A stretch of DNA of 64,000 bases. Origin: Bacteroidia bacterium (GTDB lineage: Bacteria > Bacteroidota > Ignavibacteria > SZUA-365). The stretch is from positions 4,512,552 through 4,576,551 of the forward strand of contig JAOSJT010000001.1 in NCBI GenBank assembly GCA_027493955.1. The letters are read 5' to 3'. Positions 32,969 to 37,401 of this stretch are shown here, one piece after another (within the stretch, counting starts at the first letter, position 1; each line of letters opens with the position of its first letter). The notes beneath the pieces are model-generated. The model was given only the letters and a program-made list of their open reading frames with translations. It made no database searches and was not told the origin of the DNA. Both the position numbers and the translations under genes were made by a program.

Positions 32969-33367
32969 TCACTTATTATCGGGGAGACGGAAGAAATTCA
33001 AGGAAAACGCCGGAGACGTTGGCAAGGAAGCGGAACGATCGAACCCGTAGGTGATCTTGTTCCTGTCCACAACCAGCAGCATCGTGCTCCCTCCCTCTTT
33101 GACCTCGATGTAGAGGCCTTCATCTGAGCGGGCATCGAGCGTGGCAAGGGCTCCGGTGGATGGATCGGCGAACAGGGCAATGCCGTCCTTGGGAATATCG
33201 GTACAACGGAAATCATGATCCGCAACACTGAATCCCTGATCCGTGATCGTGACGAGGCCGTCGGGTGTCGCACATTTCAAGGTAACTCCCTCTGGAAGAT
33301 TCTGTGCGGTCATGCTCGAACCGGTGGAAATGAGTATCGCGGCTGCGAGAATAATTGTCCGTCTCAT
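32969..33367 (-). CDS. Small secreted protein of unknown function
   Basis: 132 aa with an N-terminal signal peptide (cleavage near SSMTAQ, about 21) and a CAGGAG ribosome site 8 nt before the ATG. The mature protein has two cysteines (CATPDG and FRCTDIP) that could form one disulfide, and an alternating beta-strand pattern ending in FSLNFFRLPDNK. It stands alone, convergent with the 890-aa gene, with its own terminator and a pair of palindromes upstream. No known family recognised. Confidence 0.7.
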   Translation of the reverse strand: MRRTIILAAAILISTGSSMTAQNLPEGVTLKCATPDGLVTITDQGFSVADHDFRCTDIPKDGIALFADPSTGALATLDARSDEGLYIEVKEGGSTMLLVVDRNKITYGFDRSASLPTSPAFSLNFFRLPDNK

Positions 33368-33779: not shown

Positions 33780-33808
33780 TTGACATTCGCACGTGAGCTC
33801 CCTATTTT
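33780..33808 (+). promoter_or_regulatory. Consensus promoter of the arsR-type cassette
   Basis: Perfect TTGACA (33780-33785), 17-bp spacer, TATTTT (33803-33808). Expected transcription start is near 33815, inside the palindromic operator. Confidence 0.8.
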
Positions 33809-33809
33809 A

Positions 33810-33831
33810 TATTTCGTATTTCTACGAAATA
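33810..33831 (+). promoter_or_regulatory. Palindromic operator over the start site of the arsR-type cassette
   Basis: Arms TATTTCGTA (33810-33818) and TACGAAATA (33823-33831) are perfectly complementary around TTTC. The site begins 1 bp after the -10 box, so a bound repressor would block initiation. Its size and AT-rich symmetry suit an ArsR/SmtB dimer, and the first gene encodes one; binding is inferred. Confidence 0.75.
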
Positions 33832-33867
33832 CTAAACAATGTGGCCGTATGCAGAGCGAGAGCAACC

Positions 33868-34182
33868 ATGATTGAGGTACTTCCCATCGTACAGCATGAA
33901 ATCGGGGAAAAGCACGTACGATTCGCACGCTATGCCAAGGCGCTCGGACATCCCATCCGGATTTTCATCGTGGAGTTCTGCCTGCGACGGAACTGTTGCT
34001 ACAGCGGCGATCTCGCCGAGCTTCTGCCCATCGCCCGCAGCACGCTTTCGCAGCATTTGAGCGAGCTCAAGAGCGCTGGTCTGATTCAGGGTGAAATCAA
34101 TCCACCGAGAATCAAATACTGTATCAACCGCGAGGCGTGGGATGAGGCAAAGGCACTCTTCGGCGACCTCATTACACTGTAA
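33868..34182 (+). CDS. ArsR/SmtB-family transcriptional repressor
   Basis: 104 aa from ATG 33868. A winged helix occupies about residues 20-90, with the recognition helix in LPIARSTLSQHLSELKSAGLIQG. Cysteines at 38, 43, 44 and 85 (FCLRRNCCYSGDL, KYCIN) could make a thiol site for As(III)-like inducers. The CC pair is not the canonical ELCVCDL of ArsR, so the ligand is uncertain. ArsR proteins repress their own operon until a metalloid or metal binds. It is the first gene of the cassette, directly downstream of a consensus promoter and operator. Confidence 0.9.
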   Translation: MIEVLPIVQHEIGEKHVRFARYAKALGHPIRIFIVEFCLRRNCCYSGDLAELLPIARSTLSQHLSELKSAGLIQGEINPPRIKYCINREAWDEAKALFGDLITL

Positions 34183-34219
34183 ATCAAACCTTCTGTTCAT
34201 ACATACTCCGGAGAACCTC

Positions 34220-34453
34220 ATGGATGTGAAAATTCTCGGTACCGGCTGTCCGAAATGCCGCACGCTCGAACAGTCCGTACGAAGCGTAGTTGAAAAACAT
34301 CATCTGGACGCCACCGTCTCCAAGGTCGAAGACATTGTCGACATCATGAATTACGGCGTGATGATGACGCCGGCTCTGGTGATAGACGGTACAGTGGTAC
34401 TCAAGGGACGCCTGCCGAATGAAGACGAACTGACATCCCTCCTTACACGCTGA
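34220..34453 (+). CDS. CxxC mini-thioredoxin (ArsE-like / TM0996 family)
   Basis: 77 aa from ATG 34220, preceded by CGGAGA. A compact thioredoxin fold with redox motif GTGCPKC (Cys10 and Cys13) and a cis-Pro loop in MMTPALVIDG, as in the small 'redox-active disulfide protein 2' family. The position directly before an ArsF-like gene and an ArsG-like permease matches the small subunit of the described ArsEFG organoarsenical system; that assignment is by context. It has no signal peptide, so it should act in the cytosol. The gene starts 37 bp after the repressor gene. Confidence 0.85.
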   Translation: MDVKILGTGCPKCRTLEQSVRSVVEKHHLDATVSKVEDIVDIMNYGVMMTPALVIDGTVVLKGRLPNEDELTSLLTR

Positions 34454-34465
34454 GGTACACCAGCC

Positions 34466-34879
34466 ATGAACACTGCAATTCTCTCCCTGCTGCTCTGTTT
34501 CATCATGCTTTCACCCGACACCGTTGCGCAAACCGTACAGAAGAGCGCAGAAAAAGCCGAAGTAAAAGCTGTTCAGATTCTCTATTTTCACGGTGCGCGC
34601 CGCTGCAGCACATGCAAGGCCATCGAGAAAGTAGCGAAGAACACCGTCAAGGATCGGTATGCCGGCGATGCGCGCGTTGTGTTTCGTACTCTGAATCATG
34701 AAGACAAGAAGAACGCCGCACTCGTCGAGAAATACCAGATCGCCGGCTCCTCGTTGATCATCCAGGGAACGGGGAAAGCGTTCAAGGACCTTACTTCGGA
34801 ATGCTTCCAGTACGCGAGAAATGACCCCGGCAAACTGCAGTCTCTGGTGATTTCAACCGTGGACGGATATCTGAAATAG
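34466..34879 (+). CDS. ArsF-like periplasmic thioredoxin-fold protein
   Basis: 137 aa. Signal peptide (1-22, cleavage near TVAQ). The mature part has YFHGARRCSTCKAIEKVA with redox Cys47 and Cys50, and continues KNTVKDRYAGDARVVFRTLNHEDKKNAALVEKYQIAGSS. This layout is that of proteins named nitrophenyl compound nitroreductase subunit ArsF. The family is linked to reducing nitro-aromatic arsenicals, but catalytic evidence for this homologue is absent. It lies between the mini-thioredoxin and the permease, spaced 12 and 6 bp. An alternative role is a general thiol-redox carrier for the permease next door. Confidence 0.82.
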   Translation: MNTAILSLLLCFIMLSPDTVAQTVQKSAEKAEVKAVQILYFHGARRCSTCKAIEKVAKNTVKDRYAGDARVVFRTLNHEDKKNAALVEKYQIAGSSLIIQGTGKAFKDLTSECFQYARNDPGKLQSLVISTVDGYLK

Positions 34880-34885
34880 CCACGC

Positions 34886-35578
34886 ATGGAATACCTCCAG
34901 AACCTGCTTGATTCGACCCAGGTCCCGTTCCTCTCCGCGTTGCTGCTCGGGCTGATGACCGCCATCAGTCCTTGTCCTCTCGCCACCAACATCACGGCGA
35001 TGGGATACATCAGCCGCGATATTGAGGATCGGAAGCGTGTGTTCCTCAACGGACTGGTGTACACGCTGGGCCGCGCGTTTTCCTACACCGCCCTCGGGAT
35101 TGTCATATTTTTTGGAGCGAGCACATTTGACATTTCCCGCCTCTTTCAGGGTTGGGGCGAGCGTCTGCTCGGACCGATGCTTATACTCGTGGGTGTCGTC
35201 ATGCTCGATATTCTGCCGTTGCGACTCCCTGGCGGCGGCACACTGACAGAGCGTGTCGGAGAAAAACTGAAGGGATTCGCGGGCGTCTTTCTCCTCGGTG
35301 CGCTGTTCGCCCTCGCATTCTGTCCCTACAGTGGTGTGCTGTACTTCGTCATGTTGATTCCGATGACGGTGGCGGGTGCGGATGGATTGTACCTGCCGGC
35401 GGTGTACGCTGCGGGAACCGGTCTTCCGGTGATCATCGCCGCATGGCTGCTCGCGTTTACCGTGCGCGGCATCGCCGGTTTCTACCAGAAAGTAAAAATG
35501 TTCGAATACTGGTTCCGTCGCGTCGTTGCCGTGCTCTTTATAGCCGCCGGCGTGTATTTCATCGTGCAGTTTCTGTAA
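34886..35578 (+). CDS. ArsG/CcdA-like membrane permease
   Basis: 230 aa with six predicted helices of the LysE/DsbD-CcdA type. Paired membrane cysteines occur in LMTAISPCPLATNITAMGYI (Cys30) and FALAFCPYSGVLYF (about Cys147), the arrangement used by CcdA to carry electrons across the membrane. The sequence resembles proteins annotated as aromatic aminobenzylarsenical efflux permease ArsG. Two readings are possible: an exporter of aminophenyl arsenicals, or a CcdA-like reductant carrier feeding the periplasmic thioredoxin-fold partners. It follows the ArsF-like gene by 6 bp. Confidence 0.85.
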   Translation: MEYLQNLLDSTQVPFLSALLLGLMTAISPCPLATNITAMGYISRDIEDRKRVFLNGLVYTLGRAFSYTALGIVIFFGASTFDISRLFQGWGERLLGPMLILVGVVMLDILPLRLPGGGTLTERVGEKLKGFAGVFLLGALFALAFCPYSGVLYFVMLIPMTVAGADGLYLPAVYAAGTGLPVIIAAWLLAFTVRGIAGFYQKVKMFEYWFRRVVAVLFIAAGVYFIVQFL

Positions 35579-35683
35579 CCGTATGGTGGGCGCGCGGGCC
35601 GCGACGGGCCGGAGACGTTCTCCTGCGCTGCGCGCCGATCCGTAACGGGATCACGTGAGATAGAAAAAGGAAAAGAGACTCTC

Positions 35684-36979
35684 ATGTCAATGAAACAGGA
35701 GTGGAAAGCCCTGGCCTGGATGTTGGGTGCCTTTCTCGCCGCGTACTTCCTGCCTGTCGGGCAAACGCGCTTCGATAATGCCGTGTATGAAGCGCTGGAA
35801 TTGCTTCGCTGGTACGCACAGGAACATGTGCTGCTCTGTCTGGTACCGGCTTTCTTCATCGCGGGCGTGATCTCGGTGTTTGTGAGTCAGGCTTCGGTGA
35901 TACGGTACTTTGGTGCGAACGCGGTCAAGTGGAAAGCATATTTGATCTCTTCCGTCTCGGGCACCGTGCTGGCGGTGTGCAGTTGCACGATATTGCCGCT
36001 GTTCTCGAGCATACACAAGCGCGGTGCGGGTCTCGGTCCGGCCATCGCTTTTCTCTATTCGGGTCCGGCTATCAACATCCTCGCTATCATTCTCACGGCG
36101 CGCATACTGGGCTGGGAACTCGGACTCGCCCGCGTTATCGGTGCGGTGCTGTTCAGTATCGTGATCGGCCTCCTGATGGCTGTTATGTACCGGAAAGAAG
36201 AGCGTGAAAAAGCCCAGGCACAAATGCATATCGAAACTCCGGCCGGGTTGCGACCGCTGTGGCAGACATCAATCCATTTCTTTGCGCTCGTCGGTGTACT
36301 GGTTTTTGCCAACTGGGGCAATCCCGGGGGCGAAGCGGGCTTTTTTACACTGATGTATGCATGGAAGTGGTGGATCACCGGCGCATTTGCGCTCGTTTCC
36401 GCATGGTCTCTGTATCGCATTGTCGGGATACGACCCGCGTGGGTACTCGCCGTCATGGCGCCGGTGATCGTGCTCGCTTTCGTCTTTCCGGAGCAACCGC
36501 TGATCTCATTCGTCGCGGGCACCATCGGTCTGACGCTGCTCACGGGCTTCACACCCGGCGAACCGCGCGAATGGCTGGAATCGAGTTGGGGCTTTGCGAA
36601 GCAGATCATGCCCCTGCTTGGTGCCGGTGTGCTTGTTGCCGGCTTGCTGCTCGGTAATGCCGGAGGCGAGGGGCTTATTCCCAACGACTGGATATCAATG
36701 CTCGTCGGCGGTAATTCTCTCGGCGCGAATCTCTTCGCCTCCGTGTTCGGTGCGTTCATGTATTTCGCCACGCTTACCGAAGTTCCCATTCTCCAGGGAC
36801 TGCTCGCCAGCGGCATGGGCAAGGGTCCGGCTCTTGCGCTCCTCCTTGCCGGTCCGGCACTTTCTCTTCCAAACATGCTGGTCATCCGCAGTGTGATGGG
36901 AACGCAAAAAACCGTTGTCTTCGTCTCCCTCGTGATTGTGATGGCCACGCTCAGCGGTTTGATTTTTGGTGCAATGTAA
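35684..36979 (+). CDS. ArsP-type permease (predicted organoarsenical / thiophilic-compound exporter)
   Basis: 431 aa with ten or so hydrophobic helices. The conserved AVCSCTILPLFSSIHKRGAGLG (Cys99 and Cys101) is the signature of the DUF318/ArsP permeases, and a second copy-like motif (FATLTEVPILQGLLASGMGKG, GPALSLPNMLVI) marks the C-terminal half. Members of this family export trivalent organoarsenicals or are linked with mercury or other thiophilic stress. It is separated by 105 bp from the ArsG-like gene, with no convincing separate promoter. It overlaps the following thioredoxin gene by one base (TAATG). Confidence 0.85.
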   Translation: MSMKQEWKALAWMLGAFLAAYFLPVGQTRFDNAVYEALELLRWYAQEHVLLCLVPAFFIAGVISVFVSQASVIRYFGANAVKWKAYLISSVSGTVLAVCSCTILPLFSSIHKRGAGLGPAIAFLYSGPAINILAIILTARILGWELGLARVIGAVLFSIVIGLLMAVMYRKEEREKAQAQMHIETPAGLRPLWQTSIHFFALVGVLVFANWGNPGGEAGFFTLMYAWKWWITGAFALVSAWSLYRIVGIRPAWVLAVMAPVIVLAFVFPEQPLISFVAGTIGLTLLTGFTPGEPREWLESSWGFAKQIMPLLGAGVLVAGLLLGNAGGEGLIPNDWISMLVGGNSLGANLFASVFGAFMYFATLTEVPILQGLLASGMGKGPALALLLAGPALSLPNMLVIRSVMGTQKTVVFVSLVIVMATLSGLIFGAM

Positions 36980-37401
36980 TGAGAACGATAGCATCGCTGA
37001 CCATGACTCTTTTCGCTTCGGCACTTCTCCTCGCAACGGGCTGCGGGGAGAAGCGCGATGCGTCGGTCACACCGGAGGGATTGCCCGTGATCACTGCCTC
37101 CGCTATCGACAGTTTCGTCACCGCCGGCGGTATCTCGCTCATAGAGTTCGGCGGAAAGCATTGCGGTCCGTGCAAGAGCATGCGCGGCATTCTCGCATCA
37201 TACACCGCCGCGCACCCCGAGTTGCGCGTTGCCTGTGTGTACTGGGAAGAGCATCCGGAGGCCTTCAAGCGCTTCAACGTCGGTGCGGTGCCGGCGCAAC
37301 TCGTCTTCGATACCGACGGTAACGAGCGCCTTCGGAACATCGGCGTATGGGAGAAAGCCGATCTCATCGCCGCGCTCCGCACACTGTCCGGGGATTTCTG
37401 A
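36979..37401 (+). CDS. Thioredoxin-family lipoprotein
   Basis: 140 aa, start sharing one base with the permease stop. Signal peptide with lipobox LLATGC (Cys22). A thioredoxin domain follows with active site KHCGPCKSM (Cys62 and Cys65) and cis-Pro in GAVPAQLVFDTDG. It is expected to be anchored on the periplasmic side. There it could keep cassette cysteines reduced or receive electrons from the CcdA-like permease. It is the last gene of the cassette; the next gene, rlmB, is convergent, and only a weak inverted repeat lies between. Confidence 0.88.
   Translation: MRTIASLTMTLFASALLLATGCGEKRDASVTPEGLPVITASAIDSFVTAGGISLIEFGGKHCGPCKSMRGILASYTAAHPELRVACVYWEEHPEAFKRFNVGAVPAQLVFDTDGNERLRNIGVWEKADLIAALRTLSGDF

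What the first reader, a model, noticed from the sequence alone, without database searches (positions are those of the whole stretch)
33780..37401. Inducible six-gene redox-plus-permease cassette of ArsEFG/ArsP type without classical arsenic genes
Seen: consensus promoter, palindrome over the start site, an ArsR-family regulator with an unusual cysteine set, a CPKC mini-thioredoxin, a signal-peptide protein with CSTCK, a six-helix permease with paired membrane cysteines, a CSC-motif permease and a CGPCK lipoprotein. Genes are tightly packed. Known: ArsE/F/G-type proteins act on nitro-aromatic arsenicals and ArsP permeases export trivalent organoarsenicals. Inference: a cytosol-to-periplasm electron relay combined with efflux, for an organoarsenical or another thiophilic toxin. 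The absence of ArsC, ArsB/Acr3 and ArsM, and the pairing of a CcdA-like and an ArsP-like permease with three different thioredoxin folds, make it unlike standard ars operons. This is the best candidate here for an under-described system.
Basis: partly seen in the sequence, partly recalled or inferred. Interest (0 to 1): 0.75.

Follow-up and report, generated by a model that had tools for sequence, protein, structure and literature searches.

The report
Arsenic-resistance operon with redox relay
This is a bacterial arsenic-resistance gene set of an already described kind, a small regulator, thioredoxin-type redox genes and a membrane exporter, that in this genome sits apart from the usual arsenic genes it adjoins in several related bacteria.

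Summary
The six genes are real, packed and co-directional (33868-37401, +). NCBIfam names genes 2-4 ArsE, ArsF and ArsG, each above its cut-off; gene 5 is an ArsP_1/DUF318 permease. The palindrome at the promoter is the only such site in the 5.24-Mb genome and recurs upstream of 37 of 94 related loci. The anatomy is right. "Without classical arsenic genes" holds only locally: the genome has arsR-acr3-arsC-like-arsM about 2.2 Mb away, and in 5 of 9 family relatives with the cassette such genes adjoin it. Of the 80 closest ArsG loci, 77 have E+F+G and 69 also the permease; 24 of 35 full-length loci hold acr3, arsC or arsM. The redox trio and two arsP sizes in ars operons were reported in 2010 (PMC2963123); arsEFG was named by 2019 (citation only). 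Verdict: new member of a known kind. Open point: ArsG looks like the electron conduit CcdA with a cysteine pair kept in all 98 complete proteins examined, which fits a relay better than the efflux permease it is named as.

The parts
33780..33808 (+). promoter-like pair TTGACA-17 nt-TATTTT
   Evidence: 10 of 12 matches; number of such sites not clearly above chance
33810..33831 (+). operator palindrome TATTTCGTA-TTTC-TACGAAATA, probable ArsR site
33868..34182 (+). arsR, 104 aa winged-helix repressor; C44 and C85 invariant in 13 of 13 aligned proteins (a chosen subset), C43 in 12 of 13
34220..34453 (+). arsE, 77 aa thioredoxin-like protein without an evident signal peptide, CPKC (MTH895/ArsE family)
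34466..34879 (+). arsF, 137 aa thioredoxin-like protein with an export-signal-like start, RRCSTCK
34886..35578 (+). arsG, 230 aa CcdA-like membrane protein with invariant C30 and C146
35684..36979 (+). long ArsP_1/DUF318 permease, 431 aa, invariant CSC at 99-101 in the 28 aligned
36979..37401 (+). trx, 140 aa thioredoxin-like lipoprotein-like protein (CGPCK); start overlaps the permease stop

Best explanation
An ArsR-controlled arsenical-resistance operon of the arsR-arsE-arsF-arsG-arsP kind, one half of an arsenic island whose other half (arsR-acr3-arsC-like-arsM) lies elsewhere in this genome. ArsR sits on the palindrome between the -10 box and the start codon and lets go when a trivalent arsenical binds its cysteines (inferred). 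ArsE passes electrons from cytosolic thiols to the membrane cysteine pair of ArsG, which hands them to the exported ArsF and perhaps to the lipoprotein thioredoxin (relay inferred from fold, motifs and co-occurrence). The permease exports a trivalent arsenical, probably an organic one such as the methylarsenite made by ArsM (inferred from family). Which periplasmic substrate the relay reduces is unknown.
For: Family matches above cut-off for E, F, G and ArsP_1. Co-occurrence: E+F+G in 77 of 80 loci, E+F+G+permease on one strand within 3 kb in 69 of 80, with 5 of the 11 misses cut by contig ends. Arsenic link: acr3, arsC or arsM in 24 of 35 full 20-kb loci, adjacent in G002, G003, G006, G007, G008, and on a Prevotella plasmid. 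Own genome holds acr3 and arsM above cut-off. Relay: Foldseek's only confident match for the ArsG model is CcdA 5vkv, prob 1.00; C30 aligns with the TPC cysteine of this genome's DsbD; both ArsG cysteine motifs in 98 of 99 proteins, the one miss being cut by a contig end. Regulation: operator unique in the genome and recurrent; ArsR cysteines in a loop-plus-wing arrangement resembling the arsenite/methylarsenite sensor ArArsR.
Against: No experiment. ArsG is named, after a 2019 study of which I saw only the citation, as an efflux permease for aromatic arsenicals. C146 falls two columns from the second DsbD cysteine in the profile alignment. The ArsG model is middling (pLDDT 71.5, pTM 0.65); in the VIA-align second look four NQR/RNF rows score slightly above CcdA (Z 7.8 to 7.3 against 7.0), with fewer residues aligned, and such Z can be mere helical packing. 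11 of 35 full loci show no acr3, arsC or arsM within 20 kb. The relaxed operator pattern is absent in 57 of 94 loci. This ArsR scores under the metalloregulator cut-off (50.9 against 55 bits). Five of 80 loci have the trio but no permease although the sequence is long enough, and one (L137) has neither E nor F detected. G004 of the same family has E, an ArsR-like gene, F and G without an adjacent permease. In G009 the cassette has no acr3, arsC or arsM within the 12.6 kb fetched.
Confidence: 0.62

Rival explanations
1. As the published names imply: ArsE and ArsF form a nitroreductase for nitro-aromatic arsenicals and ArsG is itself the efflux permease for the trivalent aminoaryl product; the DUF318 permease is a second exporter.
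For: NCBIfam names NF040494 and NF040495; cited study on roxarsone and nitarsone (citation seen); PMC9144182 lists ArsG among exporters (passage).
Against: E and F match thioredoxin-like families and no flavin-type nitroreductase family was listed at E 0.01; ArsG resembles CcdA with a conserved cysteine pair; a separate permease stands within 6 kb in 72 of 80 loci.
Confidence: 0.2
2. The redox trio serves cytosolic arsenate reductase (ArsC), as suggested in 2010. This overlaps with the best explanation up to the acceptor.
For: PMC2963123: 7 of 8 instances had arsC in the operon (passage); arsC in 23 of 35 full loci here.
Against: ArsF has an export-like start, and CcdA-like proteins are known to carry electrons outward; the 2010 authors themselves thought transmembrane flow less likely because ArsC is cytoplasmic; here no arsC lies beside the cassette.
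Confidence: 0.12
3. A resistance cassette for another thiophilic metal, such as Cu, Zn or Hg, with a DUF318 exporter like SO_0444 or SaoE.
For: The only NCBIfam hits of the permease are the SO_0444 Cu/Zn transporter and SaoE.
Against: Both far below cut-off (109 of 300 and 107.6 of 325 bits); genomic links are to arsenic genes.
Confidence: 0.06

Closest known systems
ArsEFG (Shewanella putrefaciens 200 by recall; Chen, Zhang and Rosen 2019, citation only)
   Same: All three proteins above the curated family cut-offs, in one row after arsR
   Different: Here followed by a long DUF318 permease and a lipoprotein-like thioredoxin; no function tested; layout of the reference operon not compared
[quoted passage not shown]
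   Same: Same three protein kinds; the paper also notes a ~300 aa and a ~400 aa ArsP type
   Different: Seven of their eight instances include arsC; here the arsC-like gene is about 2.2 Mb away
Prevotella nigrescens plasmid NZ_CP072340 ars operon
   Same: arsR, arsF, arsG, thioredoxin, DUF318 permease
   Different: Short permease, different order, arsC and acr3 in the same row
CcdA/DsbD electron conduits
   Same: DsbD_2 domain, first membrane cysteine, probable CcdA fold, thioredoxin-like partners
   Different: Set in ars operons; separate curated family; second cysteine two columns off in the alignment
ArArsR of Arsenicibacter rosenii (PMC11868830, parts 1 and 2 of 3 read)
   Same: Cysteines from the loop before the recognition helix and from the wing
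   Different: Two adjacent loop cysteines and one in the wing instead of one and two; sequences not aligned here

Membership tests
ArsEFG module | ArsE, ArsF and ArsG above curated family cut-offs | tested here: met
   114.1 of 62, 96.7 of 60, 300.7 of 200 bits
ArsEFG module | genes adjacent, behind an arsR | tested here: met
ArsEFG module | resistance to and reduction of nitro-aromatic arsenicals | not testable with these tools
   needs a bench test
ArsP permease | PF03773 ArsP_1 above gathering score | tested here: met
   247.3 of 32.3 bits
ArsP permease | orthology with the characterised Campylobacter ArsP | not tested
   reference sequence not at hand
ArsP permease | export of trivalent organoarsenicals | not testable with these tools
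   needs a bench test
SO_0444 Cu/Zn exporter | NF033936 cut-off | tested here: not met
   109 of 300 bits
SaoE exporter | NF040736 cut-off | tested here: not met
   107.6 of 325 bits
CcdA/DsbD electron conduit | DsbD_2 transmembrane domain (PF13386) | tested here: met
   71.1 of 24.9 bits
CcdA/DsbD electron conduit | conserved membrane cysteine pair | tested here: met
   C30 and C146 invariant in 17 of 17 and 40 of 40; motifs in 98 of 99, one cut by a contig end; C30 aligns with the first DsbD cysteine, C146 two columns from the second
CcdA/DsbD electron conduit | CcdA fold | tested here: inconclusive
   Foldseek prob 1.00 to 5vkv but E 6.2e-3 and model pTM 0.65; Z 7.0, below four NQR/RNF rows
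DsbD proper | NF001419 protein-disulfide reductase DsbD cut-off | tested here: not met
   31.9 of 330 bits
ArsR/SmtB metalloregulator | HTH_5 domain above gathering score | tested here: met
   33.5 of 22 bits
ArsR/SmtB metalloregulator | NF033788 metalloregulator cut-off | tested here: not met
   50.9 of 55 bits
classical ars operon | acr3 (or arsB) and arsC beside the regulator | tested here: not met
   the one own-genome acr3 is about 2.2 Mb off; arsB and a genome-wide arsC search were not run; acr3, arsC or arsM adjoin the cassette in five relatives

The most novel reading that the evidence does not exclude
ArsG is not an exporter but a CcdA-type conduit: E, G and F form a dedicated outward thiol relay that serves the DUF318 permease or its periplasmic arsenical cargo. 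ArsE plus the permease would be the minimal unit: in the 29 best-scoring ArsE loci of a phylum sample other than our own, 26 have a DUF318 permease within the 1.5 kb fetched on each side, 25 of these with no ArsF or ArsG detected there. That survey is narrow: 26 of the 29 genomes belong to one family, f33, and in G151 arsF and arsG do lie just beyond. If true, the current functional names of ArsF and ArsG would be wrong. Odds lowered from a first 0.4 on account of that narrowness.
Probability: 0.36. Interest if true: 0.5.

Novelty: new member of a known kind. Interest (0 to 1): 0.3.

Why it matters
The module recurs across Bacteroidota loci, yet the chemistry attached to its names sits poorly with the protein folds. 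If the relay reading holds, ArsF and ArsG annotations in public genomes are functionally mislabelled, and arsenical detoxification gains a transmembrane redox step that can be tested with two cysteine changes. For this genome alone the finding is ordinary: an ars island in two pieces.

Tried and rejected
Another metal-exporter identity for the permease: not taken up, as it misses both cut-offs. Solved homologues by sequence: none at E 1 for the permease or ArsG, one insignificant hit for ArsF. Foldseek with the permease model gave no usable match (best prob 0.25, model pTM 0.66), so its fold stays undecided. In-frame TGA flags on some relatives' ArsM matches looked like selenocysteine, which is known for arsenite methyltransferase (PMC13188914, passage); for G005 and G006 the match end coincides with the stop codon of the open frame, so I dropped the idea; the other two flagged genomes were not checked. 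Plasmid search with ArsG: 16 records, one of them annotated as ArsG, most others as TauE/SafE-type. Paper searches turned up PMC2963123 as the one paper placing such a redox trio in ars operons; I found none that joins the trio to a DUF318 permease in Bacteroidota, but most subscription papers are not held. arsB was not searched; arsC was looked for only by its place near other genes.
Full report
What is there. The interval holds six co-directional genes at 33868-37401, with gaps of 37, 12, 6, 105 and -1 bp. On each side lies a reversed frame: an unmatched 132-aa one upstream and rlmB downstream. NCBIfam places genes 2, 3 and 4 in the ArsE, ArsF and ArsG families above their curated cut-offs. 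Gene 5 is an ArsP_1 (DUF318) permease. Gene 1 is a winged-helix ArsR-type protein just under the metalloregulator cut-off. Gene 6 is a thioredoxin-like protein with a lipobox-like start.

Control region. The sigma-70-like pair is not clearly above chance in number. The palindrome is the solid part: one exact site in the window, one in the 5,237,942-bp genome at up to one mismatch. A relaxed version occurs within 2.2 kb upstream of arsG in 37 of 94 loci; the 94 are those of 99 with at least 1.5 kb upstream, against 20 hits in 1,187,511 bp of the rest of these loci. Contig lengths and scores suggest that L112 repeats L060 and L114 repeats L067, so these counts hold a little redundancy. Among 13 chosen ArsR proteins C44 and C85 are invariant and C43 is kept in 12. 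That resembles, without a position-by-position match, ArArsR, where one loop and one wing cysteine are needed for methylarsenite and a further wing cysteine for arsenite (PMC11868830, parts 1 and 2 of 3 read).

Arsenic context. The genome has one acr3 above cut-off and one arsM above cut-off, in a row arsR-acr3-arsC-like-arsM near 2.35 Mb of the same contig, about 2.2 Mb from the cassette; the arsC-like protein is well below the arsC cut-offs (46.2 of 174.3 bits). Of the 12 genomes of the family, 10 including this one have ArsG over cut-off; in G011 a contig end cuts the gene. Nine relatives carry the cassette: eight with the long permease, G011 cut before it. In five (G002, G003, G006, G007, G008) acr3, arsC or arsM lies within a few kb and convergent; in G007 this is arsM alone. 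In three (G005, G010, G011) a contig ends in or directly behind the cassette. In G009 nothing of the kind is seen in the 12.6 kb fetched. The tenth relative-type case, G004, has E, an ArsR-like gene, F and G in another order, with its long permease on another contig. G012 of a sister family has R-E-F-G-permease without acr3, arsC or arsM in 13.1 kb. A thioredoxin like gene 6 sits behind arsM in six relatives (G002, G005, G006, G007, G009, G010) and behind the permease in G008 and here; G007 also has a weak hit (27 bits) behind the permease. My inference: the cassette is one half of an arsenic island, and the thioredoxin is a junction gene that stayed with this half.

Wider survey. E+F+G are together in 77, and E+F+G+permease on one strand within 3 kb in 69; of the 11 others 5 are cut by contig ends, five have the trio without a permease, and one (L137) has neither E nor F detected. 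Among the 35 loci of full length, 23 hold acr3, 23 arsC, 9 arsM and 24 any of these, leaving 11 with none. Permeases come in a short (about 340 aa) and a long (about 440 aa) form, 44 and 27. In an evenly drawn sample of 395 phylum genomes, this one included, 9 have ArsG over cut-off, so the module is enriched in this family but patchy in the phylum. ArsE-type thioredoxins were over cut-off in 103 of 296 sampled genomes; of the 29 best-scoring loci other than our own, 26 have a DUF318 permease within 1.5 kb, 25 of them with no ArsF or ArsG detected in that stretch. Twenty-six of these 29 genomes are of one family, f33, and in G151 arsF and arsG lie just beyond. A Prevotella nigrescens plasmid shows arsR-F-G-thioredoxin-permease-arsC-acr3 as annotated genes; it is the one ArsG-annotated record of 16 matched in the plasmid collection.

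Mechanism. ArsG has two cysteines, C30 and C146, invariant in 17 of 17 and 40 of 40 aligned proteins; their motifs are kept in 98 of 99, the miss being the contig-cut copy. A profile comparison aligns C30 with the TPC cysteine of this genome's own DsbD; C146 falls two columns from its counterpart. The predicted fold is of middling quality; Foldseek's first match is the electron transporter CcdA with probability 1.00, no other listed row exceeding 0.44, while in the VIA-align second look four NQR/RNF rows score slightly higher with shorter alignments. By eye ArsE has no signal peptide, and ArsF and gene 6 have export-like starts. The simplest reading is cytosolic thiol to ArsE to ArsG to ArsF, with the permease exporting a trivalent arsenical. 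The direction of flow, the final acceptor and the cargo are inferred.

What was known. [quoted passage not shown] The names ArsE, ArsF and ArsG go with a 2019 paper by Chen, Zhang and Rosen, seen only as a citation; its content is recalled. PMC9144182 lists ArsG among exporters and ArsE and ArsF among organoarsenical resistance genes (passages). The review PMC6205960 describes ArsP as a methylarsenite exporter with two gene clusters probably of different function (passages). So the finding is a new member of a known kind, with a functional question left open about ArsG.

Noticed in passing
L191 5701-8846 (own genome C1, about 2346.7-2349.8 kb): Separate arsR-acr3-arsC-like-arsM operon; its arsC-like protein (HNSRRSHLSQLW loop) is longer than usual and well under the arsC cut-offs.
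   Followed up: partly
window 32969-33367 (-): 132-aa frame with an export-like start next to the cassette, no Pfam or NCBIfam match at E 0.01.
   Followed up: no
L146 8616-9994: Three arsF-like genes in tandem before arsG in one Bacteroidales locus.
   Followed up: no
L206-L234: Bacteroidota loci, mostly of one family, with arsR-arsE-permease and often arsC: possibly a minimal form of the module.
   Followed up: partly
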